This document shows, one piece after another, positions 4,982 to 64,000 of a DNA stretch of 64,000 nt (position 1 is its first letter; each line of letters starts with the position of its first letter). The DNA is from a bacterium (lineage in GTDB: Bacteria > Patescibacteriota > Gracilibacteria > Peribacterales > Peribacteraceae): assembly GCA_029558515.1 (NCBI GenBank), contig JAKQEM010000039.1, forward strand, positions 34,412-98,411, in the 5' to 3' direction. The position numbers and the translations under genes are program-made. Below the pieces are notes generated by a model. The model was not told the origin of the DNA and made no database searches. It worked only from the letters and a program-made list of their open reading frames with translations.

Positions 4982-6436
4982 TCAGGCGGAGGTAGGAAGG
5001 TATTTTTCGATGTATGCCGGCTTCACCCGTTTCAGTTCGCTCCGCGGCAGTTCCGCGAGCAGGTTCCAACCGATGGCGAGTGAGTCGAAGATGGAGCGGT
5101 TTTCACGTTCGCCCTGCGCGATGAATTCGCGCTCAAAACGATCGGCGAACTTCAGGTAGGCGCGATCGGTGTCATTCAGCGAGCTCTCGCCGAGGATAAC
5201 GGCCAGTTCGCGGATTTCCGTCCCGCGTGCGTAGGCGGAAGTGAGCTGTGCGTCCATGCCGCTGTGGTCCTCGCGCGTGATGCCTTCTCCCTGGGCCTTG
5301 CCCTTCAGGCGCGAGAGCGATCCCATCGGGATGACGGGCGGGATCATGCCGCGTTGGAAGAGGCCGCGATCCAGACGGATCTGTCCTTCCGTGATGTAGC
5401 CGGTTAAGTCGGGGATCGGGTGCGTAACATCGTCTTCCGGCATCGTGAGGATGGGGATTTGCGTGATGGAGCCCTTCTTGCCTCGGATGCGTCCCGCGCG
5501 TTCGTACAGGGTGGCAAGATCAGTGTAGAGGTAGCCGGGGTAGCCGCGGCGTCCCGGGACTTCCTTGCGGGCGGCGGAGACTTCGCGCAGCGCTTCGCAG
5601 TAGTTGGTCATGTCCGTGAGAATGACGGTGACGTGATAATCGAGTTCGAAGGCCAGATATTCGGCGGCGGTAAGGGCGAGGCGCGGCGTGGCGATGCGTT
5701 CGACCACCGGGTTGTCGGCTGTGTTCAGGAAGAGCACCGCGCGCGAGAGTGCGCCCGTGCGTTCAAATTCCTTCTTGAAGTACTGCGCCTCTTCGAAGGT
5801 GATGCCCATGGCGCCGAAGACGACGGCGAATTTTCCTTCTTGGGGATTGGGGACTTGGGATTGGGGATTGGAAGTGGAGCCATTGGAATCTGGTTCGCTT
5901 CCTCGTTCGACTTCCTCTTTGGTCAGCACTCGGGCTTGGCGTGCGATCTGCGCTGCGAGGGAAGCGTGCGGCAATCCGGCGCCGGAGAAGATCGGGAGTT
6001 TTTGCCCCCGGACCAGCGTGTTGAGCACATCGATCGTCGAGATGCCTGTTTGAATGAAATCCTCCGGGAAATCTCTGGTGAAAGGATTGATCGGAGCACC
6101 GTTGATGTCGAGTTTCCTATCGGGAACGATGGCGGGTCCGCCGTCGATGGGTGTTCCCGATCCGGAGAACATGCGGCCGAGCATATCTTTGGAGACGGGC
6201 AGTTCGAAGGAGCGACCGAGGAAACGCACCTTGGTGCCGTCCGTTGTGATGCCCTGCGTGGATTCAAAGAGCTGGACGACAGCCAGTCCTTTGCGGGATT
6301 CCAGCACTTTGCCCAAACGCTGCTCGCCGGAGGACAGTTCCACGGAACAGAGCTCGTCGTAAGCGACGCCTTCCACGCCCTCGACGACGAGGAGCGGGCC
6401 GGCGATATCTCGGATGGTCTTGTAGGCGGTGGACAT
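4982..6436 (-). CDS. atpB: V-type ATP synthase subunit B
   Basis: Subunit B motifs ([45 protein letters not shown]); in-frame [10 protein letters not shown] insertion. Confidence 0.95.
5840..5871. repeat. heptad repeat (GGGGATT type) inside atpB
   Basis: TTGGGGATTGGGGACTTGGGATTGGGGATTGG. Confidence 0.9.
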
Positions 6437-6439
6437 GGG

Positions 6440-6532
6440 AGGGGTTGGGGATTAGGGGTTGGGGATTGGGGATTGGGGATTGGGGATTCGGGATTCGGAC
6501 TTCGGGACTCATAACTCATAACTCATCACTCA
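6440..6532. repeat. composite heptad array (GGGGATT + ACTCATA) between atpA and atpB
   Basis: GGGGTTGGGGATTAGGGGTTGGGGATT...TTCGGACTTCGGGACTCATAACTCATAACTCATCACT. Confidence 0.95.
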
Positions 6533-8308
6533 CGCACCCGTGCGCAGGGTTTCGATCTGGGTGCGAATCGTCGCATCAAGCGTATCGAAGTCGTTCATGT
6601 TTTCTTCCGGAATCAGGTGCGCTTGGGTGATCTGTTCTTTGACGGTGAGTGCGCGGAGTTTGTGCATATCGAAGTCCTCCGCTTCCACTACGGGCAGCGC
6701 GTGATCGAAGAACGTGAGGATGGTACGCAGCAGACGGTGCTGTTTCTTCAACGAGGTATATGCGTCGATGGGATCGTAGGCGTTCTGGAAGAGGAAGTCT
6801 TCGCGAATCATGCGCGCCGTTTCCAGGGTGAGCTGTTCCCGGGGCGAGAGGGCATCGGTGCCCACAAGGCGGACGATTTCCTCCAAGCGGCTCTCTTCCT
6901 GCAGAATCTTCATGGCGCGTTCGCGGTTTTCCACAAATTCCTCCGCGACGGATCGGCCGAAGTAGTCGGCGAGGTTATCGGCGTAGAGCGTGTAGCTCTG
7001 CAGCCAATTGATGGCGGGGAAGTGGCGGCGGTACGCGAGTTTGGCATCCAGCGCCCAGAAGACTTTGGTGACGCGCAGCGTGTTCTGCGTGACCGGTTCG
7101 GAGAAGTCTCCTCCCGGGGGTGACACCGCGCCGATGACGGTGAGCGATCCTTTGCGTTTATCACCACCCAGACAGTCGACGGTGCCTGCACGTTCGTAGA
7201 AGCCCGCCGTGCGGGAACCGAGGTAGGCGGGGTAGCCTTCCTCACCGGGCATCTCTTCCAGACGGCCGGAAATTTCGCGCATTGCTTCGGCCCATCGGGA
7301 GGTGGAATCGGCCATGAGCGCCACGTCGTATCCCATGTCGCGGTAGTACTCGGCGATGGTTATCCCCGTATAGACGCTCGCTTCGCGGGCGGCTACCGGC
7401 ATGTTGCTGGTGTTGGCGATGAGAACGGTACGTTTCATGAGTGGTTCGCCGGAATGCGGATCGATGAGGTGCGGGAATTCTTTCAGCACCTCCGTCATCT
7501 CGTTGCCGCGCTCGCCGCAGCCGATGTAGACGATCACCTGCGCGTCGCAGTACTTGGCCAAGCTTTGCTGGGTGACGGTCTTGCCTGCGCCGAAGGGGCC
7601 CGGAATGGCGCCGGCACCGCCTTTGGCGATGGGGAAAAGGGTATCGAGGATGCGCATGCCGGTGACGAGCGGTGTCGTCGGGATGCCCTTGGCGGAGACG
7701 GGGCGCGGAATGCGGATGGGCCAGCGCTGGAGCATGGATACGGAAATGGGATGAGGGATTGGGGATTCGGGATTTGGAGTGATCACGGCGATGGTTTCTT
7801 CAATGGTGAATGACCCCTTCCTGATGTCCGTGACGGTTCCCGCGACGCCGGGAGGCACCATGATGCGGTGTTCGATGAGCGTCGTCTCCTGCACCGTTCC
7901 CAGAATATCGCCGCTGACAACGTTTGCACCCTTCTCGACCGACGGGACGAATGTCCATTTTTGCGCGCGGTCGATGGCGGGGACGGAAATGCCGCGGGTA
8001 ATGTACGGGCTTTTGGCCTCTCTCTCGATGAGTGGCAGCGGACGCTGGATGCCGTCGTAGATGGAGGTGAGGAGCCCCGGCGCAAGATCCACCGAAAGCG
8101 TCTGTCCCGTCAGTTCCACGGGTTCCCCGGGTCCGATGCCGGAGGTTTCCTCGTAGACTTGGATGGAAGCCGTATCGCCGTGCAGCTCGATGACTTCGCC
8201 GATGAGGCGCTCTTTGGAGACGCGAACGACTTCGTACATTTTCGCGCTCTTCATGCTGTCTGCGACGACGAGCGGACCGGCGACTTTGATGATGGTGGCG
8301 GTGGGCAT
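6530..8308 (-). CDS. atpA: V-type ATP synthase subunit A
   Basis: Walker [35 protein letters not shown]; in-frame [10 protein letters not shown] segment. Confidence 0.95.
7746..7778. repeat. heptad repeat inside atpA
   Basis: TGGGATGAGGGATTGGGGATTCGGGATTTGGAG. Confidence 0.85.
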
Positions 8309-8346
8309 AGAGAGGTGAGAAAGGTGAGGAAGGGCAGGAAGGGAGG

Positions 8347-8410
8347 AAGGACTAAGGACTAGGGACTAGGGATTCGGACTTCGGGACTCATAACTCATAA
8401 CTCATCACTA
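8347..8410. repeat. composite heptad array between atpF and atpA
   Basis: AAGGACTAAGGACTAGGGACTAGGGATTCGGACTTCGGGACTCATAACTCATAACTCATCACTA. Confidence 0.95.
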
Positions 8411-8758
8411 TCCCAGAATATTGCTACCGATGGCGCGTTCCACGATGGTGCGCAGACGCTCGGGGCCAAAACCCGTAGCGCCGCGATGTGAGGGGAGAGG
8501 AATAATGGCAGGGAGTGCTCCGCGCGCAAGCTTACGCAGGTCGTCGGCCCCGATGCTCTGCAGCAGGTCTTCGGTGACGAAGAGGATGGCGTAGGCATTG
8601 CGCTCGATGCCGTGCTCATCGGTTTGCATGGTGCGCTTCAGGCGGATGAGTGCCTCCAGAGCCTGTGTGCCGTCCTCTACCGGGACTACCTCCGCACCGA
8701 GCAGGGTGAATCCCGCAATGGTATCGCGGGGGCCGATCATGGCGATGCGGTACATCAT
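8408..8758 (-). CDS. atpF: V-type ATP synthase subunit F
   Basis: MYRIAMIGPRDTIAGFTLLGAEVVPV; operon position between C and A. Confidence 0.85.
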   Translation of the reverse strand: MMYRIAMIGPRDTIAGFTLLGAEVVPVEDGTQALEALIRLKRTMQTDEHGIERNAYAILFVTEDLLQSIGADDLRKLARGALPAIIPLPSHRGATGFGPERLRTIVERAIGSNILG

Positions 8759-9759
8759 GAAGAGTAGCGGGTGGCGGAGAGGAAGGGGGGTAAGAGCCGT
8801 TTGATTTCCTGAGGGGAGAGGTCGCTTAGCTTGCCGATGAGGATGGCGCGCAGGAGGGAGAGCTGGTTGAGAGCGACGGCGGCGAATGCGAAGACGGGTT
8901 CGATGGTGAGCGGATGGTTCCAGAGGAGCTCGATGTCTTCCGCGCGGATGGCACTGAGCGCCTGTTCGATGTCCGATCCGGTGATTCCAGGTGCTTCCAG
9001 CCTGTCGGCCAGAGCATAGAAGCCGGAGCGTCGCACGAGTGAGGCGATCGAGCCGTTGATTCCTCTGAGATCTTTCGGATCGATGGTGCCGCCCGGGAGC
9101 ATCTGCGACGCGTCCTTAGAGCCTGCGACGAGGCGCAGAGCGGTACGGATATTGCGCACATCGATGGCATGGCGCACAAAACGCAGGAGAAGAATGCTCC
9201 CGCTGCGCTCCGCCAATCGGAGCGATTTTTCCATTCTGAAGACGGAGACGCGCTCATCGATTTCTGCGGGATCTGACGCTTGCGAGGCGATCATCTCCTG
9301 CACGAATGCCGTTTCCTCCGCGGGGAGGGCGTGCGGGTCACTTTCCAACACGAGTCGTGCCCAGGCATCGGAAGGATGGGCGGTGACGGACGGCGTCGGC
9401 CTGCGGCTCATGTCGGACGTCAGACCCAGCCGTTCCTTCAGGAGCGCGGCGAGCAGCGGGGCATCCCCTTTCCACCAGAGAATATCGAACGGAGCACGCT
9501 TGTGCTCCGGCACCATCGCAGCAACTTCCGTGCGCACCCAGGCACCGAGTGCCGCAATGACATGGTCGGGATTGCGCTGCGATTGATCGAGAAGCTTGGT
9601 GAAGGGAAGGTCCGACAGGATGGTCTGCACTTCTGCGCGATCATGCGCCCCCAGCAGCCGATCGAGATCGGTCTGCGTCAGGAGGGAGAGCTGCAGCACG
9701 CCGGAGCGTCCGTGAGCGAACGCGAAGTGCTGGCCGAGAACGGCGGAAGTGCGGAGCAT
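8755..9759 (-). CDS. atpC: V-type ATP synthase subunit C
   Basis: Size, operon position and V-ATPase C/d-like helical sequence. Confidence 0.8.
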   Translation of the reverse strand: MLRTSAVLGQHFAFAHGRSGVLQLSLLTQTDLDRLLGAHDRAEVQTILSDLPFTKLLDQSQRNPDHVIAALGAWVRTEVAAMVPEHKRAPFDILWWKGDAPLLAALLKERLGLTSDMSRRPTPSVTAHPSDAWARLVLESDPHALPAEETAFVQEMIASQASDPAEIDERVSVFRMEKSLRLAERSGSILLLRFVRHAIDVRNIRTALRLVAGSKDASQMLPGGTIDPKDLRGINGSIASLVRRSGFYALADRLEAPGITGSDIEQALSAIRAEDIELLWNHPLTIEPVFAFAAVALNQLSLLRAILIGKLSDLSPQEIKRLLPPFLSATRYSS

Positions 9760-10325
9760 CAGGAGAGGGGCGGAAAGAGTTGCCCGGCGACGGCGGCTTC
9801 CGTCTGCGGCCGCAGAATATCGTTGACGAGGGTGGCAAACGTGCAGTCGCGTTCCTCCTTTTCCGAAACAAACACGAATCCGCCGGAGGTCTGGAGCGGT
9901 TCACCCGGCGTCAGACGCGCGTTACCTTTGAGCAGATCCGCAAGCAGAGCGGCGTGCGCTTTCGCGGGGCGGATGACGCCCGTTCCATGAATGTGCGCCA
10001 AGAGACCCTGCAGGAGCGGCTTGATCTTCGCGGGGGGCTGTTGCGCCAGTTGCCGCTCGATGTCCGCGTACACATGGTCGAGCAGGGCGCGCTTCGTGGA
10101 GAGCAGGGCGTTGCGACGGTGTACGGTCATGGCCGCTTCTCCTTTCATGTGCATTTGGCGTTTTTTGTCCTCACGTTGTGCATTGATGTCCTGCTTCTTC
10201 TTCACCAGGCGACGATCACTCTCCTCCCGCAGTTGCGAGAGGCGCTTTTGGTGGGCTGTCCGCGCGTCGGCGATCTGCCGGTTTGCGTCGGAGACGATGG
10301 CGTCGAGAATGTCTTGGAGGGCCAT
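9759..10325 (-). CDS. atpE: V-type ATP synthase subunit E
   Basis: Charged coiled-coil N-terminus and position between K and C genes. Confidence 0.8.
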   Translation of the reverse strand: MALQDILDAIVSDANRQIADARTAHQKRLSQLREESDRRLVKKKQDINAQREDKKRQMHMKGEAAMTVHRRNALLSTKRALLDHVYADIERQLAQQPPAKIKPLLQGLLAHIHGTGVIRPAKAHAALLADLLKGNARLTPGEPLQTSGGFVFVSEKEERDCTFATLVNDILRPQTEAAVAGQLFPPLS

Positions 10326-10340
10326 GGGAGAGAGGAGGAC

Positions 10341-10420
10341 GAAGGACTAGGGACGAGGGATTCGGGATTCGGACTTCGGGACTCATAACTCATAACTCAT
10401 AACTTACAACTCATCACTAT
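10341..10420. repeat. composite heptad array between atpK and atpE
   Basis: GGGATTCGGGATTCGGACTTCGGGACTCATAACTCATAACTCATAACTTACAACTCATCACTA. Confidence 0.95.
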
Positions 10421-11001
10421 CCGAGAATGGAACCGCGGAAGGAATTGAGCAGGAAGAAGGAGATCAGGAATCCGAGGAGGGCGTACGTCTCCACGAGTGC
10501 GGCGAGCGTGATGACGCGTCCCGCGAGTCTGCCGTCCTTGGCCAGCATGTGGAGACCGGCAGTGCAGACCTTGGCCTGGTACGGCGCGGAGGTGAAGCAG
10601 GTGACGGCGACCGGCAGGAACGTAGCGAGGAGAATGAGACCCTGTGCCATGGAGAGCGGCACCTCGCCGGAAATGACGGGGCCGAAGTTAAAGATGAAGA
10701 GCAGCGAGATGACCATGCCGTAGAGACCTTGGGAGCCCGGGAGCACGGCGAGCGTGATCACTTTGCCGGCGAGATCGGGCTTCTCGGAGATGAGCCCGGA
10801 ACCTGCCTGGCCTACCATGCTCACTCCCAAGACCGATCCGATGCACGCGAGGAACGTGGCCATGCCGGCACCGAAGAAAGCGAACATCAGGCCCCAGGGG
10901 GCTGCGGAGGCGACGGTTTCCGGTAGCACGGCATCCTGTGCGAAGACCAGTGCGGGAGTGGCGAATGCCGCCAGTGCCGCGAGGGACGTATACTTGTTCA
11001 T
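10417..11001 (-). CDS. atpK: V-type ATP synthase subunit K (double-hairpin c subunit)
   Basis: LPGSQGLYGMVI and LVETYALLGFLISFFLL resemble Enterococcus NtpK; ATG at 11001. Confidence 0.92.
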   Translation of the reverse strand: MNKYTSLAALAAFATPALVFAQDAVLPETVASAAPWGLMFAFFGAGMATFLACIGSVLGVSMVGQAGSGLISEKPDLAGKVITLAVLPGSQGLYGMVISLLFIFNFGPVISGEVPLSMAQGLILLATFLPVAVTCFTSAPYQAKVCTAGLHMLAKDGRLAGRVITLAALVETYALLGFLISFFLLNSFRGSILG

Positions 11002-11069
11002 AGGAAGGGAAGAAAGGAGGTAAAGAGAGTAATCGGCTTCGTCTGAGGACTCCGCCGTATAGAAACGCA

Positions 11070-12998
11070 CTAGGAGGAGCGCTGGAAAGGCGCGAAGGGG
11101 CGACCGCCGCCCTCGAAGAATTGACTGAAGAATTCGATGAACTGCAAACGGCCGGAATGGATGAAGCTGCCGAGCGTATTAAGGGCGATGGAGACGAGGT
11201 GTCCGCCGAGGAAGATGACGATGATGACGGGAATCGCAAGCCATGCGGGAAAGAATTTACTCATTTCCACCGCGACTTGATTCACCGCGAGCGCCATGGC
11301 ACCGGTGACGAGCCCGAGTGCCAGGATGCGCAGGTAACTGAGTCCGTTCGACAGCATGCTGATCGCAAAGTTCAGCAGGCCGATTACGCCCATGACGGGG
11401 CGCAGATACCACGCATTCCCGTAGCCCTTTCCCCAGAGTGCCAGTACCACGCCCGCGTACAAAACGTATTGCGCGATGTCCCGCAGTTCGGCCGGTGCCA
11501 TGAAGCGGAAGATGATTGCTCCCAGGAGGATGTGCGAGGAGAAATCCATCCAGAACGCTTCGGCTTTTTTCCCGTGCATCCACTTGTGGAATCCTGCCAG
11601 GAACATGCCGAGGAAGAGGTGCGTCAGTCCCAGTGCCAGCGCGAGGTTTTGCAGGAAGGTCACGCCCGTTTGCTGCGAGAGATTCCAGAATTGCCCCTTA
11701 AACCACAGTTCGCCCGTCGGCGTCATCGTGGTCAGAGCCGCGGGCACCTGCTGCGGCGTGAGGCCGAAGTATCCCCCGAAGAGGATGCCGACGAACATGG
11801 AAACGATGCCGCTGAAGAACAGCAGCCAGAGGAGGGGCGCCTGCGTGACGGATTTCTTCATCTTCCAGAGTGCGATACCGAAGATGAGGGCGAGCGCCAA
11901 ACCGTAGCCGGCGTCCGTGAGGCAGAGTGCGAAAAAGAGAATGAAGAACGGAGAGAGAGCGGGTGTGGGATCCATGTCCGTCGGACGAGGCAGGCCGTAG
12001 AGCGCCGTGACGCTGATGAACGGTGCGATGAACGGCAGATGTTTCAGGAGGATCGGCGCTTCCTCGTTCTCCTCCTGTTTCATGCGCAGCACTGCAATTG
12101 CCGGGGAAATGCGATGCAAACGGCGTTCCAGGTGAGGTATGAGTTTTTTGGGGACCCATCCGAGGAGTGTGACGGTGCTCAGCGTCGCGCCCATCGACTC
12201 ACGGACGGACTGCTTATCCGCAAGCCACTCTACGTACCGCTCCACCTTTAGCAGAGACGGGAGCTCCAGCGTCAGCTGTTTGCGTTCGTCACGTATGCTT
12301 TCCCTGTGTCTTTTTGCTTCTTCCAGGCGGGCAACCGCATCCTCATACAGATCGGCTGCCGTTCCTTCCCAGGCGGGCAGGACGACGGTGGTCCAACCGT
12401 GGGCGGTCACGACTTCCTCGAAGGCGTGCTCTTCTTCCCTGTGTACCAGCGCGACGGCGCTCGCCACTTCCTCCGAATGCCCCAGGAGGTCGATGTGCGA
12501 ACGGGGGGCTTTCTTCGCGATGTCGTCCCGCACAGTTTGGGCCTGCGCCACGGGCAGCGTCCCGAGAATACGTCGCACGTACCGTGACCGGTCCGGACCG
12601 TGCAGAGGGTAGGGCAGCGTGGTCCAGGAACGCAGCATCGCGATGCGATCCGTGTATTCCTGTATGATCTTCTGTGCGTCGGCTTCTTGCTCCGCAAGGC
12701 GATGGAGTTGATCGACGATGCCGCGAACATCGGTATGGAGAGCGGCGCGCGTGATGTCACTCTGTTGAGCCGGACGATGTGCCAGGGCAAGGATGTCTTT
12801 CGAGGCAACGGCAGAGAGGGTCCGGATGGCAAATTGCAGTTCCGCGATGCGGAAATTGACTTCGGTGTGATCGATGTCCGGTGCCTGTTTCCTTTCACAA
12901 ATCTCCATGACACCCTCCTCGTGCAAATACTCGATGAGTTTCTCCCGCTGAGAGCGGTGTGCGAGAATGGCCACTTTTTGCATGCGGACGATTGCCAT
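11070..12998 (-). CDS. atpI: V-type ATP synthase subunit I
   Basis: N-terminal coiled coil plus C-terminal multi-TM domain (GLTHLFLGMFLAGFHKW, NGLSYLRILALGLV). Confidence 0.92.
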   Translation of the reverse strand: MAIVRMQKVAILAHRSQREKLIEYLHEEGVMEICERKQAPDIDHTEVNFRIAELQFAIRTLSAVASKDILALAHRPAQQSDITRAALHTDVRGIVDQLHRLAEQEADAQKIIQEYTDRIAMLRSWTTLPYPLHGPDRSRYVRRILGTLPVAQAQTVRDDIAKKAPRSHIDLLGHSEEVASAVALVHREEEHAFEEVVTAHGWTTVVLPAWEGTAADLYEDAVARLEEAKRHRESIRDERKQLTLELPSLLKVERYVEWLADKQSVRESMGATLSTVTLLGWVPKKLIPHLERRLHRISPAIAVLRMKQEENEEAPILLKHLPFIAPFISVTALYGLPRPTDMDPTPALSPFFILFFALCLTDAGYGLALALIFGIALWKMKKSVTQAPLLWLLFFSGIVSMFVGILFGGYFGLTPQQVPAALTTMTPTGELWFKGQFWNLSQQTGVTFLQNLALALGLTHLFLGMFLAGFHKWMHGKKAEAFWMDFSSHILLGAIIFRFMAPAELRDIAQYVLYAGVVLALWGKGYGNAWYLRPVMGVIGLLNFAISMLSNGLSYLRILALGLVTGAMALAVNQVAVEMSKFFPAWLAIPVIIVIFLGGHLVSIALNTLGSFIHSGRLQFIEFFSQFFEGGGRPFAPFQRSS

Positions 12999-51457: not shown

Positions 51458-51529
51458 CAGCCTCACGGGGAATCGAACCCCGATTTGCAGGATGAGAACC
51501 TGCTGTCCTAACCGTTAGACGATGAGGCC
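51458..51529 (-). tRNA. tRNA-Glu(CTC), CCA encoded
   Basis: GGCCTCA/TGAGGCT acceptor, anticodon arm GCAGG-TTCTCAT-CCTGC, T arm CGGGG-TTCGATT-CCCCG; CCA follows at 51455-51457. Confidence 0.93.
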
Positions 51530-51673
51530 GTCTGCGGACGCAGAGTATAGAAAAGTGTGTGGGACGCAACAACTCCAATGGGAAGGTGTGGCGCATGCCG
51601 CAAGTTGGACAGAGAATGAAGTGAGACGGTGGGGAATGGTATCTGGTGTTGCATTTTTGAACAGAATGCCTAT

Positions 51674-52084
51674 TTAAGACCACATTCTAATAATTTTTTG
51701 GATTGTCTTCTTATGGTTTGCTTTTTTCAAATCACTCTCTGTGATTCTGAGCACTTTCCAGTTTGATTTTTTGAGTATTGAATTCACTTCATTATCTCTG
51801 GAAATGTTGCGCTCAATTTTTGGTATCCAGAATTTCCGGTTCGATTTGAATGTTCGTTTTTGTTTGTGCCAATCGGCTCCGTGCCAGAATGCGCTATCAA
51901 AAAATACTGCGATTTTTTTCCCTTTATGCCCCGCATCGGGATTGCCTGGTACGTTTTTCGGATGTTTGCGGAAACGCACTCCCGCAGTCTTTAACAATGC
52001 CCATCCCGTCTTTTCCAATTGAGTCTCTTTTCCTTTGATTCGCGACATAATATCACTGCGTTTTTCCTTGGAATATACGTCCAT
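51674..52084 (-). CDS. vsr: very short patch repair (Vsr) endonuclease
   Basis: MDVYSKEKRSDIMSRIKGKETQLEKTGWALLKTAGVRFRKHPKNVPGNPDAGHKGKKIAVFFDSAFWHG. Confidence 0.93.
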   Translation of the reverse strand: MDVYSKEKRSDIMSRIKGKETQLEKTGWALLKTAGVRFRKHPKNVPGNPDAGHKGKKIAVFFDSAFWHGADWHKQKRTFKSNRKFWIPKIERNISRDNEVNSILKKSNWKVLRITESDLKKANHKKTIQKIIRMWS

Positions 52085-52144
52085 GTTCGAATGGTACATC
52101 AGTTATCATTGTCATTGCATGGCAAGTCGGTCTATTCTCGGCGC

Positions 52145-52792
52145 ATGCCCGGAGCCAAGAAAAAATTGTTGGATTACTTTTTGGAGCATGTCGGCATTCC
52201 CCTTTCAAAAAATAATCTTGCGTCTGTTGCTTCAGTTCATGATTGGGCGCGTGTGATCAGAACGTTGAGACAGGAGGGGTGGGACATTATTTTGCTTGAG
52301 AACGGGGATTATGTATTGCGTTCGTCTCAAAAAAGCCATGGTCATCTGCGTGAGAAAATTGATCAAAAAACACGATATCGCATTCTCCAGCGCGATTATT
52401 CTACGTGTCAGCGATGTGGCAAAACAATTCAAGACGGTGTGAAACTTATGATCGATCATAAATTGCCGGTTGATTTCGGTGGTAAATCCGTTGATGAAAA
52501 CTTATGGGCTCTTTGTGCGGAATGTAATTTGGGAAAGAAACATTGGTTTACGGACAATGATCCGGAAGTGATGAAAAGAATTTTTGCATTGGACAGCGGT
52601 TATCAAAAATTGAAAGCGTATTTTGAATCTTATCCTAATGTATTGCTTCGTGTTTCAGACTTAAATTTTGTTTCGGGGATAAGAGATTGGGAGAGGACAT
52701 TGCGGCTGATAAGAAGAAAAGAGGGAATGAATATCGAATATATTTCAAATGATTCCACATCAGGAATGGAAGGGTATATGTACGTGACATGA
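52145..52792 (+). CDS. HNH endonuclease, putative type II restriction enzyme
   Basis: CQRCGKTIQDGVKLMIDHKLPVDFGGKSVDENLWALCAECNLGK; abuts methyltransferase. Confidence 0.85.
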   Translation: MPGAKKKLLDYFLEHVGIPLSKNNLASVASVHDWARVIRTLRQEGWDIILLENGDYVLRSSQKSHGHLREKIDQKTRYRILQRDYSTCQRCGKTIQDGVKLMIDHKLPVDFGGKSVDENLWALCAECNLGKKHWFTDNDPEVMKRIFALDSGYQKLKAYFESYPNVLLRVSDLNFVSGIRDWERTLRLIRRKEGMNIEYISNDSTSGMEGYMYVT

Positions 52793-53752
52793 TCAAGCAG
52801 CCAATGCCAATCGACGATTATCGATGGTCCATGTATCGAGAATCGCCACGTGTGGTTTTGTGATGAGCTGATTGACCAATGCTTTGCCTGTTTCATAGAT
52901 CGCATTCACCGCGACGCTGTTTCCGAGTTGTTTCATGGCTTGCACTTCGGTTACGGGAAATTCGAAATCATCGGGAAAGCCCATCATCTTCTTGCCTTCG
53001 TTCGGTTTGAGTGCTCGTACTTTCCCGTCCGCCAAATAACTGTCCCAGTTGCGACGGTCATGCAAACCGGATCCTCTGCCCCCCACACGCAGCGTGAACC
53101 CGATGCGTCGTGGGCAGGAAGCACCGAGAATGTCAGACATGGTCAATTGCAACGGAATCGGTTTCGGGAATTCGAATTTGAACGTACTTGGATCGACGAG
53201 GTCATCTCTGAAACCGATCATATAGACTCTTGGTCTGTGTGTGGGCAGGCCGAAATCGGATGCGCGAATCAGTTGATAATCAAAGGAATATCCCAAGCTG
53301 CGGAGCGTATTTTCAATGACTTCTATGGTTTTTCCATTATCATGTTTTGCGAGATTTCTGACATTTTCCAAGAAGAATGCTTTGGGTTTTTTCGTGTCGA
53401 TGATCTCAGCGATGTCGAAGAAAAGCGTGCCTCTCGTTTCCTCAAACCCTCGTTTGAATCCGGCTTGACTGAATGGTTGGCAGGGGAAGCCGGCACACAA
53501 CACATCGAAATTTTCGGGAATCATCGCTTTGTTTTCCGGTAATGTGATATCTCCCGTGAACATGCCGTTTTCAAACAATTCAGGATCGATTTTCTTGAAA
53601 TTATGTTCGTAAGTCTGGCGTGCGTGTTTATCCCATTCACTTGCATATACGCATTTTCCCCCCAGTCGGTGCATTGCAATGTGGAATCCTCCGATTCCTG
53701 CGAACAGATCGATGAATGTAAAACTGTGTTTCTTCCTTGTCAGGATCTTCAT
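52793..53752 (-). CDS. DNA (cytosine-5-)-methyltransferase
   Basis: FIDLFAGIGGFHIA, GFPCQPFSQAG, ENVRNL, MKQLGNSVAV. Confidence 0.93.
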   Translation of the reverse strand: MKILTRKKHSFTFIDLFAGIGGFHIAMHRLGGKCVYASEWDKHARQTYEHNFKKIDPELFENGMFTGDITLPENKAMIPENFDVLCAGFPCQPFSQAGFKRGFEETRGTLFFDIAEIIDTKKPKAFFLENVRNLAKHDNGKTIEVIENTLRSLGYSFDYQLIRASDFGLPTHRPRVYMIGFRDDLVDPSTFKFEFPKPIPLQLTMSDILGASCPRRIGFTLRVGGRGSGLHDRRNWDSYLADGKVRALKPNEGKKMMGFPDDFEFPVTEVQAMKQLGNSVAVNAIYETGKALVNQLITKPHVAILDTWTIDNRRLALAA

Positions 53753-53909
53753 GGTTGTAACCATAACAAATATGACGTTTGGGTGTCCATTTAATGATAA
53801 TGCAGCATTATACAATTATTGTCCGGTTGAACATTCGTACACTCATACCAAATAAATTACATAAAAATCTCATACATCTGAACTATTCGCGAGCATGTAC
53901 AATCCCTCC

Positions 53910-57848: not shown

Positions 57849-60800
57849 TTATTCCTGCACGATGGCGGTCGTGTTGCCGCTCGTGCCGGTGACATTGACC
57901 GTTGATGTCGTATTCGCGGTTCCTGTCGCATCGGCAGATTGATTGCCTCCTCCCGTCTGCGTGACCGCGGTGTCATTGAGCGATGCGGCATCCTGTGAGG
58001 CGTCGATGGCCGTGGTCGCATCGTCGGTGACGTCCGCCGTTTGATTGCTCTGATCTCCGCTGCCGGTCTGTTCCACCGTCGTCTCGTTGGTGGCATCACC
58101 CGTGACGTTCTGCTCGGCCTGCGTATCCGCATTGAGATCGACTTCCGTGTACTGCGCGCACACGCTCATGTCTACCGTGCACGTCTGGAAGACGGTCGTT
58201 GTGTTCGCCGCCGCAGCATCCTGCGCCGCGTTTACGTCCGTCGCAGCCGTGTTCTCGACGACGGCATCCTGATTGGCTTGGTCGCCATCCCCGCCGTCCT
58301 GGCTGACATCGGTGGTGTTTCCTGACGTACCCGCGACGTTCTGATCAGCCGTCGTGGACGCAACCGGAATGACGTAGAAGTATTGAGCACACGCTCCCTG
58401 CGTCACGTCGCATTCCTGGATGATGTCCACGAGGTTTTCAGAGGCGGCGTTCTGGTCCGCGCTGACTTGCGTGTCCGCATCGGCGTCGATGGTCGCATCC
58501 TGATTGGCTTGGTCGCCGTCCCCGCCGTCCTGGCTGATGCCGGAGAGGTTGCCGGATGTTCCCGACACGTCCTGGCTCGCCGCAGTCGTCGCTACCGGAG
58601 CGACTTCACCGGCCTGCGCCACCGCGCCGTGATCGGCGGTCGCGCTCTGCTGCAGAGTGATGACATTGGTCGCGGTCGAATCCTGTCCGGCCTGCACATC
58701 CGTGGAGGCCGCCGCATCGATGCCCGCGTCTTGGTTGGTTTGCTCCCCGCCTTCCGCGTTCTGCTCGATGCCCGAGATGTTGCCCGCATCACCCGAGACG
58801 TCCTGCACGGCCGCCACACCGGCGACCGGTGCGATCATCACCCACTGTGCGCCCGCGCCGTGATCGATGTCCTGTTCCTGGGAGGCGTCGACGACGTTGA
58901 CGGCTGCCGCCGTCTGCTCGGCTCCGACGTTCGTCGAAGCGTCCGCCGTACTGTCTGCCGCTTGGTTCGCGTCGCCGTCTTCCGCGTTCTGCGCGATGCC
59001 CGAGATATTGCCGGACTGTCCCGATACCTGCTGCACCGCCACCGCCTGCGCCGTCGGATCGATGATCATCGATTGCGCGCCCGCTCCGTGATCCACCTCC
59101 GCTTCCTGGTTGGCGGTGATGTCGTTGAGAGCGATGACGCCCTGCAGTGCCGCGACCGTGCTCTCGCTGTCACTTCCCATCTCCGCATCTTGATTGTGCG
59201 CACCGTCCCCGTCCGCGTTCTGTCCGATGCCTGAGACAATGACGGACGCGCCATTGGCCGCCTGGACGCCGGTTGCATCGCTCGCGGCGTCGATATCCAA
59301 GGACTGAGCCACCGAGCCCGCATCGGCGTCGGCGGACTGGCTGACGTCCGCTGCATTGGTGGAGACGATCTCTTGTTCCGCGTCCACCGTCGCAGCGCTG
59401 TCATTGACCATGTCTGCGTTCTGGTTGGTTCCGCTCGCCTCCTGCTCGATGATGGCTCCGATCATCGAGACCCCGCCGACGATCTGCGTGCCGTTTGCGG
59501 AGCTGTCCAGCGCCACGGTCGCATTTTGATTGCCTTGGTCGCCGTCATTGACTTGCTCCAGATCGGCGACGTTGAAGGAGACAGCGGCTTGATCCGCACT
59601 CACGTCGACACTGCCGTCGTTGTTTGCCGTCGCCTGTTGGTTGATGTCGCCGTCTCCGCTCGCGCTCTGTCCCGCCGCCAGCACGACGACCGATGTGCCG
59701 TCGATCACTTGCACGCCGCTCGCTTCGCTGTCGGCGGCGACGGCCGCCTGCTGATTCCCCTGATCGCCGCCATTTTCTTGCGAAGCATCGATGATGTTGA
59801 ACGAGAGCACCGATTGCGCGCCGTCGACCTCCGTTTCGCTGTCATTCTCCAGGTCCATGTTCTGGTTGGCGCTCCCGTCGGTATCGGCTGTCTGGGCGGC
59901 ATCCACCAGGACCACGGAATCACCCGTGAGCACCTGCAGGCCCTCGGCGTCGCTTTCCGCCGCGATGTCCGCCAACTGGTTGCTGCTCTCGCCGCCCTCC
60001 TGTGCCAGTCCGATCTCATTGAAGGAAACCACGGACTGGTCGCCGTTGATGTCCGTCCCTGCGGATTGCTCCGCGTCCATCGCTTGATTGGCAGATCCAT
60101 CGCCGCTGCTGTCCTGGCTCAAATCTGCGATGACGGTCGAGTCGCCGGTGACGACTTGCACGCCGGTTGCCAGCGCATTGGCGATGACGTTTGCCACCTG
60201 ATTGCACTGTCCGTTGCAGGTTTGCAGAACGGTCAGGATGTTCATGGATGTGAGCTGCTGCAGCGTGTCGATGAATGTATTGGCGTTGAAGATGTTGGTA
60301 ATGTACTGATTGGTCGGCCCGCCGCTTGCAGTTTGCGCGGTCGATCCGATGGCGCTCGCCGCGCCCGCGATCACCACCACGCCGTCTCCGTCGGCATCCG
60401 CTTGCGTGTCCGCCAGTTGGTTTGCTTGGTCACCGTCACTTTCCTGCTTCGCCGTCAGAATATTGAGCGTCGCTCCCACTGCCGCCATCTCCACGTCTGT
60501 CTCCGCATCGGCGGCCGCATCGGCATCCTGATTGGCCGGTCCGTCGCCGTTTGATTCCTGCGCGATGTCCGTCATGCTCTGCGCCGTCGTATCCGCCGCG
60601 AGTCCCAGGAGCAGATCGGCATCGAGCCCGCCGGTCATTTCCTGATTGCTCTGCTCTGCGGCAGCCGTCTGCGTGGCATCCACAGCGTTGTCCGCCGTCA
60701 GATCGCCGTCGACCGCCAGCACCGCATCGGCATCGGTCGCCGCATCCGCTTCCTGGTTGGCGGCCTCCTCATCCGCTTCCTGCGTGACGGTCGCTCCATT

Positions 60801-61001
60801 CTGCGAGAGGGACGTGAACCCGGCGAACACACTGGTCACCGCCGACGTTCCCATGTCCATGAGTTGATTCATGAAGGGGGCGGCTCCCGCGCCGCTCACC
60901 CAAAAGAAAAGAGAGGCAACCGTTACCGTTGCCGAGATCCGGATGATCCGGGCCGATGATGTGTGTGGGGAGAACGCTCTCCCCGTGTTCGGAGTGGGCA
61001 T
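57849..61001 (-). CDS. large secreted Q/N-rich repeat protein (~1050 aa)
   Basis: N-terminal signal-like segment (RIIRISATVTVASLFFWVSGAGA), then repeats of the form Q-x(3-5)-G-D-x-x-NQ; ATG at 61001. Confidence 0.85.
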   Translation of the reverse strand: MPTPNTGRAFSPHTSSARIIRISATVTVASLFFWVSGAGAAPFMNQLMDMGTSAVTSVFAGFTSLSQNGATVTQEADEEAANQEADAATDADAVLAVDGDLTADNAVDATQTAAAEQSNQEMTGGLDADLLLGLAADTTAQSMTDIAQESNGDGPANQDADAAADAETDVEMAAVGATLNILTAKQESDGDQANQLADTQADADGDGVVVIAGAASAIGSTAQTASGGPTNQYITNIFNANTFIDTLQQLTSMNILTVLQTCNGQCNQVANVIANALATGVQVVTGDSTVIADLSQDSSGDGSANQAMDAEQSAGTDINGDQSVVSFNEIGLAQEGGESSNQLADIAAESDAEGLQVLTGDSVVLVDAAQTADTDGSANQNMDLENDSETEVDGAQSVLSFNIIDASQENGGDQGNQQAAVAADSEASGVQVIDGTSVVVLAAGQSASGDGDINQQATANNDGSVDVSADQAAVSFNVADLEQVNDGDQGNQNATVALDSSANGTQIVGGVSMIGAIIEQEASGTNQNADMVNDSAATVDAEQEIVSTNAADVSQSADADAGSVAQSLDIDAASDATGVQAANGASVIVSGIGQNADGDGAHNQDAEMGSDSESTVAALQGVIALNDITANQEAEVDHGAGAQSMIIDPTAQAVAVQQVSGQSGNISGIAQNAEDGDANQAADSTADASTNVGAEQTAAAVNVVDASQEQDIDHGAGAQWVMIAPVAGVAAVQDVSGDAGNISGIEQNAEGGEQTNQDAGIDAAASTDVQAGQDSTATNVITLQQSATADHGAVAQAGEVAPVATTAASQDVSGTSGNLSGISQDGGDGDQANQDATIDADADTQVSADQNAASENLVDIIQECDVTQGACAQYFYVIPVASTTADQNVAGTSGNTTDVSQDGGDGDQANQDAVVENTAATDVNAAQDAAAANTTTVFQTCTVDMSVCAQYTEVDLNADTQAEQNVTGDATNETTVEQTGSGDQSNQTADVTDDATTAIDASQDAASLNDTAVTQTGGGNQSADATGTANTTSTVNVTGTSGNTTAIVQE

Positions 61002-61279
61002 AACGGGTGAAAAGAAAGGAAGTACAAAACAAGGTAGGTGACGTGCCTTCCCCGTTGCTCTTACGAATCTTTCGGACGTTTCGCCTTTTGGTTTGTCGTT
61101 CACCTTGGTTCATTTTTGACGGAGACCATGAGAAGGACCGTGCGTCGCGCATATTTTCGAAGGATGCGCAGAAATATTGTTGGCTTTTCTGTCATGGCTC
61201 TGCCGCTTTGGCGTCTCCGCATGACGTGAGGCGCGTTTGCCGCCTCCATTCCTTTTATCCCTCTTTCCCACCTTTCTCT

Positions 61280-62269
61280 ATGATGCGTGCACACATACGC
61301 AATCGGTTGGCCGCGAAGGCGGTCTCCGCGGCGGCGAGCATCGCGCTCGTCCTTTCAGTATCGGCGCCGGGCATCGCTGCCGCCGCCGGCAATCAAACAT
61401 CGGGTCTCAGCGTGTCATCTTGGACCGTCATCCAGGCGCTCCTGGGAGGTTTGTCCATGAATGCGCAGGTCATCGGTCAGCAGGGCGACGAGGACATGAA
61501 TAATCAGGAGGCGGATGTCGGTCAGGAGGCGGATCTGAACGTGGAATTGTCGGGTGCGGTCGACGCCACCAATGCCACCGAGGTGGAACAGGAGGCCGAT
61601 GATGACGATCAGGCCAATCAGGAGTCCGAGGCGGAAGTGGAAGCCGGCCTTTCCTTCGGCGCGCTCGTCGAGGCGCTGCTCTCCAATGTAGGCGAAGTCG
61701 AACAGGAGGCCGGGGGTGATCAGAACAATCAGGAGGTCGCTGTCGATCAAGAGGGGGAGAGCGACGTCGCACTCGACGCGGAAGCGGAAGCATCCAACGA
61801 TTTTTCCGTTGCACAGGATGCAAACGATGCGGAGCAGACCAATCAGGAAAGTGATGCCGCCGTTGCCGCCGAGATTGACATCGAAGCCATGGTTGACGCC
61901 GTGCTGACCAATGCAAGTTCCGTGGAGCAAGCTGCGGACGGTGAGCAGAACAATCAAGCGGCCGACGTCGGGCAATCGGGCGAGCAGGACGTAGAGTCAT
62001 CCATCGATGCGGCGGCGGAGAATGAAGTGGAAGTCGTGCAGGAAGGCGGCGGCGATCAGAGCAATCAGGAGTCGGCGCTCGAGGTGGATGCAGCGGCCGA
62101 AGTGGCGTCCACGGTCGAATCTGCGGTGGTGAATGCCTCCGAAGTGTCGCAGGAGGACGGGGGTGATCAGGGCAATCAGGCGGCTGCCGTCTCGCAGAGC
62201 GCGAGCAACACCGTCACGTCCAGCATCACCGCGACGAGCGGCAACACCGTTTCCGTCACGCAGGAGTAA
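61280..62269 (+). CDS. secreted Q/N-rich repeat protein (~330 aa), divergent paralogue
   Basis: Signal-like AAKAVSAAASIALVLSVSAPGIAAA; repeats VEQEAGGDQNNQ, VVQEGGGDQSNQ, VSQEDGGDQGNQ. Confidence 0.85.
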   Translation: MMRAHIRNRLAAKAVSAAASIALVLSVSAPGIAAAAGNQTSGLSVSSWTVIQALLGGLSMNAQVIGQQGDEDMNNQEADVGQEADLNVELSGAVDATNATEVEQEADDDDQANQESEAEVEAGLSFGALVEALLSNVGEVEQEAGGDQNNQEVAVDQEGESDVALDAEAEASNDFSVAQDANDAEQTNQESDAAVAAEIDIEAMVDAVLTNASSVEQAADGEQNNQAADVGQSGEQDVESSIDAAAENEVEVVQEGGGDQSNQESALEVDAAAEVASTVESAVVNASEVSQEDGGDQGNQAAAVSQSASNTVTSSITATSGNTVSVTQE

Positions 62270-62331: not shown

Positions 62332-63039
62332 TTATGAGCGTTCCATCATGCCCCCGAAGTGCTGCACCCAGTAGCCGTCCGCGTATCCCACGCCCATCTC
62401 CTCAAATTGCGGGTGCAAGATGTTGGCACGGTGCGGGGGGGAATCCATCCACGCATCCATGGCGGCAGCGGGGATGGCTTGGTTGTGCGCGAGGTTTTCG
62501 CCGGTCACATATCGATAGGCGCAGTCGCAGGGCGGATGCAAATAGCCCGTCTCTCGTATGCGATCGACGGAGGATCCGCCGTCGGGATCGGTATGGGAAA
62601 AAAATCGGTCTTGCGCCATCCACTCGGCATACCGTTGCGCGGATGCCTGGAGCTGCGGATGCAGGGTCAGTGCCGTGAGTCCAACTGCCGCACGTTCCCC
62701 GTTCACGAGGCGGAGCATCTCTTCCTGCAACGGATGGACTGATGCCGCCGCGTGCACCGCGGTCACCTGTTTCCTGCGATCAGTCGCGGTGCGTCGCACC
62801 ATGACGCGGGCCGTCTCCCTGCGCACACTGACGCGGGTTCTGCTGCTTGCCACTGCCGTCGATTCCCTTTCTTGCCGGGAGAGTCGGTGCTCCCTTCGTT
62901 GCTCCCTTCGCTGCAGCAATCGTGTGGCTTGCGGCTCCGGATCGGAGGGGAGACGGCTCGCTTCCCATGCCCATGCCGTGGTTGCCGTGCCGCATGTGAA
63001 CGCAAGAGTGATGACGGTCAGAAGTATGGTGCGGGTCAT
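62332..63039 (-). CDS. secreted CAP (SCP/YkwD-like) domain protein
   Basis: EEMLRLVNGERAAVGLTALTLHPQLQASAQRYAEWMAQDRFFSHTDPDGGSSVDRI...GENLAHN...AMDAWMDSPPHRANILHPQFEEMGVGY. Confidence 0.92.
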   Translation of the reverse strand: MTRTILLTVITLAFTCGTATTAWAWEASRLPSDPEPQATRLLQRREQRREHRLSRQERESTAVASSRTRVSVRRETARVMVRRTATDRRKQVTAVHAAASVHPLQEEMLRLVNGERAAVGLTALTLHPQLQASAQRYAEWMAQDRFFSHTDPDGGSSVDRIRETGYLHPPCDCAYRYVTGENLAHNQAIPAAAMDAWMDSPPHRANILHPQFEEMGVGYADGYWVQHFGGMMERS

Positions 63040-63085: not shown

Positions 63086-63685
63086 TCAAAGAATCGGGAG
63101 GGTTTTTTTCTCCGGTTGCATCAGTTCCGCGAAGATGACCAGACGCCTGTCATACGTTTGCCGATTCCATTGCCCGATGCATGTGATGAGATTGAGGTAG
63201 CGGCCGCTTGCGGCACCGAAGATCTCTTGCATCGGAGCTCTGTCGTAGGGGAATGCCTCCGTTCGGGTCACGCGGAACTTGAGTGGCCCATTCTCCGTTT
63301 CCACCACGATGATTTCTCCCGGTTGCATGCCTGAGAGTGCCCAGAAGATGCCGGGCGTGCCAAGCGCCGTATCACGATGGCCGGCGAGCACCGCGTTGCC
63401 TGTGTCGCCCGGAACGAATCCGTGCTCGTACCATCCCACCGAGAATGCGCTTTGGGGAATGTCCATATTTCCGCGTTCCGTCAGGCCGACGGGTTCCACC
63501 GGAGCATCGATGCCGTGCGCTGGAATGCGTAGTCGCAGGGGGCGCTGCGGGATCGTCTGCTCCTCCATGAGTACCGGTGCGTCCTGCGGACGCATGTGAC
63601 GATCCTGCGGGAGCAGCAGGAGGTTTGTCAGCATGATCACGATCATGATGCCCATGGTGCCGTTGAGGATGCCGTGCAGGCTCAT
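63086..63685 (-). CDS. sortase family protein
   Basis: GNAVLAGHRDTALG catalytic His, YLNLITCIGQWNRQTYDRRLVIFAEL catalytic Cys/Arg. Confidence 0.88.
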   Translation of the reverse strand: MSLHGILNGTMGIMIVIMLTNLLLLPQDRHMRPQDAPVLMEEQTIPQRPLRLRIPAHGIDAPVEPVGLTERGNMDIPQSAFSVGWYEHGFVPGDTGNAVLAGHRDTALGTPGIFWALSGMQPGEIIVVETENGPLKFRVTRTEAFPYDRAPMQEIFGAASGRYLNLITCIGQWNRQTYDRRLVIFAELMQPEKKTLPIL

Positions 63686-64000
63686 CGCAGTCCGGTAAGA
63701 CGGATGCGTTTGTCATTCGCCCGGTTCGACGAGGGCAGCGCGGAGATGAGTTCGAAGACGGGAAGCGGTGCCGGACCGTTTCCGGCGGCGGGCATGCCCA
63801 ACGGCACATCCCCACCGAACCCCGGCGGGGGAAGATCTCCTTCAGTGGTAGGAGAGGGTGTCCTCTCTCCTCCTCCCGGGGCGTTGCTGTTCTCTCCCCC
63901 TCCACCCCCTCCTCTGTTCTCATTTTGATTGACTCCTCCTCCACCCCCTCCACCTCCACCTCCACCTCCGCCTCCTCCACCCCCACCCCCACCCCCCTCA
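63683..64000 (-). CDS. C-terminal part of a Gly-rich protein running off the window (partial)
   Basis: Frame ending with TGA at 63683-63685 reads ...GGGVNQNENRGGGGGENSNAPGGGERTPSPTTEGDLPPPGFGGDVPLGMPAAGNGPAPLPVFELISALPSSNRANDKRIRLTGLR-stop; absent from the ORF track (no start in window). Confidence 0.55.

What the first reader, a model, noticed from the sequence alone, without database searches (positions are those of the whole stretch)
57849..62269. Divergent pair of secreted Q/N-repeat proteins resembling curlin-type amyloid repeats
Two divergently transcribed genes encode proteins with Sec-type signals followed by many units such as VSQDGGDGDQANQDAVVENTAATDVNAAQ and VSQEDGGDQGNQAAAVSQSASNTV. 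The spacing Q-x(3-5)-GD-x-x-NQ with alternating hydrophobic residues is close in style to curlin repeats (S-x5-Q-x-G-x2-N-x-A-x3-Q). The long protein has a double unit of ~77 aa and is very acidic and Cys-poor apart from three paired-Cys inserts (TCNGQC, ECDVTQGAC, TCTVDMSVC). Inference: extracellular fibre/beta-solenoid or functional amyloid, possibly a two-component major/nucleator pair. No recognisable csgE/F/G is in the window.
Basis: partly seen in the sequence, partly recalled or inferred. Interest (0 to 1): 0.8.

Follow-up and report, generated by a model that had tools for sequence, protein, structure and literature searches.

The report
Curli-like secreted repeat-protein pair
Two neighbouring genes of a tiny, uncultured groundwater-type bacterium encode secreted proteins built from a 37-residue unit repeated 26 and 7 times, predicted to coil into rods like those of bacterial biofilm amyloids; the repeat belongs to no catalogued family and has close relatives only in the same bacterial family.

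Summary
A (57852-61001, -, 1050 aa) and B (61280-62266, +, 329 aa) are divergent, acidic proteins with Sec-type signals by eye, made of 26 and 7 contiguous ~37-aa units (double unit 75-77). Acidic residues sit almost only on alternate positions of each unit (alignment-free z 9.8 and 4.9), the signature of a beta-coil with a charged outside and an N/Q/A/V core. AlphaFold2 gives all-beta coils every ~37 residues (pLDDT 86 and 73). The genome is a Candidatus Peribacteria (Patescibacteria/CPR) relative. Related proteins of up to 2618 aa occur in 8 of 353 genomes of the class, all in one family; the Cys-pair units and last unit keep their place. In five relatives the large gene lies at or next to an ECF sigma-factor gene. 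No Pfam, NCBIfam or PDB-sequence match; curlin family and CsgG were searched and not found. Weak Foldseek hits rank FapC and curlin first. Verdict: a new repeat family that works like the curlin/Fap beta-solenoids but is not a member of either; fibre or amyloid formation is inferred, not shown. The major/nucleator idea is not supported: three relatives carry one large protein and no detectable small partner.

The parts
57852..61001 (-). Protein A, 1050 aa: signal peptide (about residues 1-41), about 31 aa lead-in, 26 contiguous ~37-aa units
   Evidence: stop codon at 57849-57851
61280..62266 (+). Protein B, 329 aa: signal peptide (about residues 1-37), about 28 aa lead-in, 7 contiguous ~37-aa units
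   Evidence: stop codon 62267-62269
61002..61279 (.). Divergent intergenic region that must hold both promoters; no sigma-70 consensus site found
60120..60227 (-). 6th unit of A with Cys pair TCNGQC (residues 259-294); same ordinal place in the G031 ortholog
58305..58421 (-). 5th-last unit of A with Cys pair ECDVTQGAC-AQY (residues 861-899); conserved in place in G031 and G067, similar unit in G080
58074..58190 (-). 3rd-last unit of A with Cys pair TCTVDMSVC-AQY (residues 938-976); conserved in place in G031 and G067, similar unit in G080
57852..57962 (-). Last unit of A, T/S/N-rich and almost uncharged (residues 1014-1050), shared with B, G031, G067 and G059 proteins
62147..62266 (+). Last unit of B (residues 290-329), same type as the last unit of A

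Best explanation
A and B are Sec-exported structural proteins. Shown: a contiguous ~37-aa tandem repeat with strict in/out alternation. Predicted: each unit makes one coil of a beta-solenoid, with Q/N/A/S/V side chains stacked inside, D/E outside, one G-rich loop per coil, and a Cys pair that could clamp that loop in a few coils. Inferred: the rods (about 12 nm for A's 26 coils, about 3.5 nm for B, at 4.8 A per coil) stack end to end outside the cell into thin acidic fibres for cell-surface or matrix use, as curlin and FapC do. Being exported straight through the Sec system, they would need no outer-membrane pore. In five relatives an ECF sigma factor encoded at or next to the large gene may control it.
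For: Periodicity 37/75-77; invariant Q and NQ columns over 77 units; D/E 1.0% in inward versus 30.4% in outward columns, and an alignment-free test gives z 9.8 (A), 4.9 (B) and 3.9-10.5 in five relatives. AlphaFold2 on repeat-shifted alignments: A C-terminal 7 units pLDDT 86, pTM 0.70, strands broken about once per ~37 aa; B pLDDT 73, pTM 0.57. Foldseek top two of 350,542 PDB chains for both models are FapC 9u4u and CsgA 8c50, though not significant. Half-motif N-$-Y-$-Y-$-Q of curlin (PMC10192328) strongly enriched. N/Q ladders and one cross-beta layer per 38-39-aa repeat are how FapC is built (PMC12392863). Units and Cys-unit positions conserved between genera while copy number varies: about 26, 44, 44 and more than 60 units. 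ECF sigma gene directly upstream of the large gene in G031, G067, G080, G013 and one gene away in G064.
Against: No sequence homology to curlin or Fap could be shown. Foldseek E-values (0.006-0.04), probabilities (0.01-0.13) and TM-scores (0.05-0.16) are too weak to claim the same fold. The repeat-shifted alignment pushes AlphaFold2 towards a solenoid, and the five models disagree in confidence (86 down to 67; 73 down to 49). High negative charge (-156) opposes end-to-end stacking unless cations or a pairing surface compensate. No assembly partner, chaperone or anchor was found next to the genes. Fibre formation is untested.
Confidence: 0.5

Rival explanations
1. Monomeric acidic beta-solenoid rods displayed on the surface (adhesin stalk, spacer or S-layer-associated decoration) that never polymerise.
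For: Single chains already reach 26-60+ coils; charge is high; SLH-domain proteins lie near the gene in G031 and G067 and near the small member in G013; copy number varies as in stalk proteins.
Against: No SLH, LPxTG or membrane anchor in A or B; no non-repeat binding domain at the tip; the last unit is nearly uncharged, which would suit end-to-end contact.
Confidence: 0.35
2. A distant true member of the curlin or FapBC family that has lengthened or rearranged its unit.
For: Curlin half-motif enriched; relatives G064/G013 have NNIGVNQ.GG units close to the published FapC motif GN-Y-G-Y-N; hhalign score to CsgA/B units 8.7 against a maximum of 8.1 in 60 column-permuted controls.
Against: hhalign probability 1.5%; no PF07012 in 40 relatives while E. 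coli rings; no CsgG in 20 relatives while four control genomes ring; no FapC or CsgA chain found by profile search of the PDB even at E 10.
Confidence: 0.1
3. A low-complexity acidic, mostly disordered secreted protein (cation or mineral binder) whose alternation is only a by-product of composition.
For: D/A/T/S/Q/N-rich composition, net charge -156.
Against: Near-invariant Q/NQ columns, in/out alternation far beyond composition shuffles, conserved Cys pairs, all-beta model with pLDDT 86.
Confidence: 0.05

Closest known systems
CsgA/CsgB curlins (Pfam PF07012 Curlin_rpt; structure 8c50)
   Same: Secreted tandem repeats; half-motif N-$-Y-$-Y-$-Q, then a G-containing loop, then a second strand; N/Q columns; predicted stacking of one unit per coil
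   Different: Unit 37 aa instead of 23 +/- 5; second strand starts with Q-$-A-$-Y and runs on for about 14 more residues; no Pfam match; no CsgG found; Cys pairs flanking the loop; strongly acidic
FapC/FapB (structures 9u4u, 9nqd)
   Same: Unit length 37 versus 38-39; conserved inward Asn/Gln; motif N-Y-G-Y-N in the G064/G013 relatives; top Foldseek hit for A
   Different: FapC mostly has three repeats separated by linkers and lies in a fapABCDEF operon; here 7 to more than 60 contiguous units; no detectable sequence match
Cys-rich large surface proteins reported in Ca. Peribacter riflensis (PMC4736985)
   Same: Large secreted proteins of the same lineage (Peribacteria)
   Different: Those are described as very Cys-rich; A has six Cys and B none; no repeat of this kind is described in the passages read

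Membership tests
Curlin (CsgA/CsgB) | Match to the curlin repeat profile PF07012 | tested here: not met
   E. coli control rings
Curlin (CsgA/CsgB) | Repeat unit of about 23 aa | tested here: not met
   period 37 and 75-77
Curlin (CsgA/CsgB) | First half-motif N-$-Y-$-Y-$-Q | tested here: met
   12 in A against shuffle mean 1.0; B only 2 against 0.2
Curlin (CsgA/CsgB) | Second half-motif N-$-Y-$-Y-$-Q closing the kernel | tested here: not met
   second strand reads NQ-$-A-$-Y-$-x
Curlin (CsgA/CsgB) | CsgG export channel in the genome | tested here: not met
   PF03783 absent in own genome and 19 relatives, present in 4 controls
Curlin (CsgA/CsgB) | Two-sheet left-handed beta-solenoid | tested here: inconclusive
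   all-beta coils predicted; coordinates could not be inspected, Foldseek match weak
Curlin (CsgA/CsgB) | Forms amyloid fibres | not testable with these tools
   needs purified protein
FapB/FapC | Sequence match to FapC | tested here: not met
   profile and single-sequence searches of all PDB chains, a copy that should include the FapC structures, find none
FapB/FapC | Three ~38-aa repeats separated by linkers | tested here: not met
   26 and 7 contiguous units
FapB/FapC | fapABCDEF operon | not tested
   neighbours of A and B are an AI-2E transporter, a CAP protein and a sortase; a whole-genome search for Fap export genes was not made
FapB/FapC | Greek-key cross-beta coil, fibre formation | not testable with these tools
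   coordinates of the models could not be inspected; fibres need purified protein
Sortase-anchored wall proteins | C-terminal LPxTG-type signal with membrane helix | tested here: not met
   A ends ...SGNTTAIVQE, B ...SGNTVSVTQE, although a class F-like sortase gene lies at 63086-63685

The most novel reading that the evidence does not exclude
Peribacteria (CPR, presumed to lack an outer membrane) make their own functional-amyloid surface fibre from a 37-residue beta-solenoid repeat, exported by the Sec system alone, length-tuned by unit copy number and clamped by disulfides at fixed coils, independently evolved from curli and Fap.
Probability: 0.35. Interest if true: 0.82.

Novelty: new variant of a known kind. 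Interest (0 to 1): 0.6.

Why it matters
Little is known about what holds CPR cells to surfaces or hosts; my library searches for candidate phyla radiation with amyloid returned nothing on a functional amyloid of theirs. A lineage-restricted family of giant beta-solenoid proteins, several of them beside an ECF sigma gene, is a concrete, testable candidate. It would also show that the curlin/Fap design (one unit per cross-beta layer, inward N/Q ladder) can arise with a different coil and without the outer-membrane export machinery.

Tried and rejected
Curlin membership: rejected. Obligatory major/nucleator pair: rejected, G031, G067 and G080 have a single large gene. ECF sigma control of A/B by a neighbour: the own-genome member of that sigma clade is on contig C49, next to other genes, so linkage holds for relatives only; the sigma clade itself occurs in 43 of 74 genomes of the family, and most of the loci read have no large repeat gene downstream. 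HMM-based test of in/out alternation on held-out proteins: dropped as evidence, because shuffled proteins matched by the same HMM show the same bias; replaced by an alignment-free test. First genome-contig scan with B, and profile A1 as a scan query, gave nothing. Alignment A5 contained a row I had mistyped; it was not used and was redone as A6. Promoter scan: nothing. No shared ECF promoter motif was sought beyond looking at the upstream sequences.

Full report
WHAT IS THERE. The two genes are real and divergent. A runs 61001 to 57852 on the minus strand (1050 aa), B runs 61280 to 62266 on the plus strand (329 aa); 278 bp lie between their likely starts. Both begin with a basic stretch, a hydrophobic core and an AxA-type end (by eye), and have no C-terminal anchor. 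After a lead-in of about 30 residues each is nothing but contiguous ~37-aa units: 26 in A and 7 in B. Autocorrelation peaks at 37 and at 77 (A) or 75 (B), so units alternate in two types. The window ends at the end of its contig (one search places it at C38:34412-98411; contig length 98411).

THE UNIT. Aligning 77 units from A, B and an ortholog gives Q at column 2 in 97%, N at 13 in 84%, Q at 14 in 87%, A/S at 22 and 36 in about 90%, and V/L/I at 42 in 78%. Every second residue from column 14 to 42 is almost uncharged: D/E make up 1.0% of these positions against 30.4% of the ones between. The alignment could favour such a pattern, so I repeated the test with no alignment, counting D/E at even and odd distances from the anchoring Q: z = 9.8 for A, 4.9 for B, and 3.9 to 10.5 for five relatives. 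A chain that alternates for 28 residues without a slip, repeated every 37, is what a beta-coil with an N/Q/A/V core and an acidic outside looks like. An HMM-based version of the test was biased and is discarded.

CYS PAIRS. All six Cys of A, and all six of the G031 ortholog, lie at columns 4 and 12 of a unit, that is, on both sides of the G-rich loop. The units that carry them keep their place: 6th from the start, 5th-last and 3rd-last in A (26 units) and in the ortholog (44 units). The two C-terminal ones are also present in G067, and similar units occur near the end of the G080 protein. So the ends are conserved while the middle expands. The last unit, T/S/N-rich and almost uncharged, is shared by A, B, G031, G067 and a G059 protein. 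Disulfide formation is inferred.

RELATIVES. A profile of double units (A1) finds relatives in 8 of 74 genomes of the same family, 8 of 353 of the class, and in a 380-genome sample of the phylum only in that family. Sizes: 1720 aa (G031), 1755 (G067), 2618 (G080), fragments or small proteins in G059, G009, G013 and G064. Named records for three of them are Candidatus Peribacteria RIFCSPHIGHO2_01_FULL_51_35, Candidatus Peribacteraceae STB_185 and Candidatus Peregrinibacteria E14, so the window is from the Peribacteria branch of the CPR. Two further large proteins, 1123 aa (G064) and 987 aa (G013), were found by their position, not by the profile. They carry NNIGVNQVGG-type units; their profile A6 matches A1 (hhalign E 5.5e-4 for one comparison) and also hits the G080 protein (E 1.4e-8), which bridges the two groups. 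None has a Pfam match.

GENE CONTEXT. In G031, G067, G080 and G013 the gene just upstream of the large gene encodes an ECF-type sigma factor; in G064 one gene lies between. For G031, G067 and G080 these sigmas form one clade with one own-genome protein (39%, 36% and 47% identity; other own sigmas about 20-30%). But this clade is present in 43 of 74 genomes of the family, mostly without a large repeat gene next to it in the loci read, and in the window's genome it sits on another contig. The link suggests regulation in relatives and is unproven for A and B. Next to A and B are an AI-2E-type transporter, a CAP-domain protein and a class F-like sortase.

STRUCTURE. Using alignments in which windows of seven units were shifted against each other, AlphaFold2 gives for the last seven units of A pLDDT 86, pTM 0.70, all beta, with about one break per unit, and for mature B pLDDT 73, pTM 0.57, eight coils. 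The shifted alignments favour a solenoid, and the lower-ranked models are less sure. Foldseek against the PDB puts FapC and CsgA first and second for A, and CsgA and FapC for B, but no hit has E below 0.001, probabilities for these are 0.01-0.13 and TM-scores 0.05-0.16. I read this as the same style, not a proven common fold.

COMPARISON WITH KNOWN SYSTEMS. Curlin units average 23 aa with two half-motifs N-$-Y-$-Y-$-Q around an X-G-X-X loop (PMC10192328; $ = outward, Y = hydrophobic). Our unit has the first half-motif (12 strict copies in A, 63 loose in G080, against 1.0 and 1.6 in shuffles) but a different second strand and about 14 extra residues. There is no PF07012 or CsgG in the genomes tested, and the profile comparison with E. 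coli CsgA/CsgB units is at noise level, score 8.7 against a permuted maximum of 8.1. FapC has 38-39-aa repeats, one per cross-beta layer, held by inward Asn/Gln (PMC12392863): the closest parallel in size and logic, but with three spaced repeats, and no sequence match was found. So: works like these, probably; member of either, no.

MECHANISM AND LIKELIHOOD. Beta-solenoid: about 0.9. Polymerisation into a fibre: about 0.5. Display as single rods: about 0.35. Steps shown: repeat, alternation, conservation, lineage restriction. Steps predicted: fold. Steps inferred: export route, disulfides, fibre, regulation by ECF sigma. The pair idea (major plus nucleator) fits the window, but three relatives carry only one large protein, and the extra small ones in G013 and G064 are unlinked to the large one.

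NOVELTY. A new repeat family and a new variant of the curlin/Fap kind of protein. I found no paper on amyloid-like proteins of CPR bacteria among the held open-access papers; subscription papers and preprints are not covered.

Noticed in passing
51500-53900: Local G+C dip (0.42-0.48) holding an HNH nuclease-like ORF (52019-52792, +) and a cytosine-5 DNA methyltransferase-like ORF (52793-53815, -), placed tail to tail: looks like an acquired restriction-modification pair (by eye).
   Followed up: no
4982-12998: Run of A/V-type ATPase subunit-like genes; the relatives G013 and G064 show F-type-like ATPase genes beside their small repeat gene (L036, L037) (by eye).
   Followed up: no
63086-63685: Class F-like sortase next to a CAP/YkwD-like protein (62332-63039) beside A/B, although neither A nor B has a sorting signal; the sortase substrates in this genome are unknown.
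   Followed up: partly
63930-64000: Very C-rich (G-rich on the other strand) simple sequence at the very end of the contig; probably why the assembly stops there.
   Followed up: no
L052 6190-7524; L070, L073, L074, L079, L083: Recurrent locus in the family: ECF sigma gene, sometimes one further gene that looks like an anti-sigma factor, then a Cas4/PD-(D/E)XK-like ORF (LSRSKIELFL..CPRCFYLDRR); in G013 the 987-aa repeat gene sits between sigma and that ORF.
   Followed up: partly
L015 14145-16001; L033 128-2287: Large RTX-type calcium-binding repeat proteins (PF00353) near the giant repeat genes of G031 and G080.
   Followed up: partly
L035 925-4117: G059 copy runs over a contig end and runs of N, so its full length is unknown; its units carry many Cys pairs (HCEGIVCAQ, TCDSIVCAQ, DCSGPTCAQ).
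   Followed up: no
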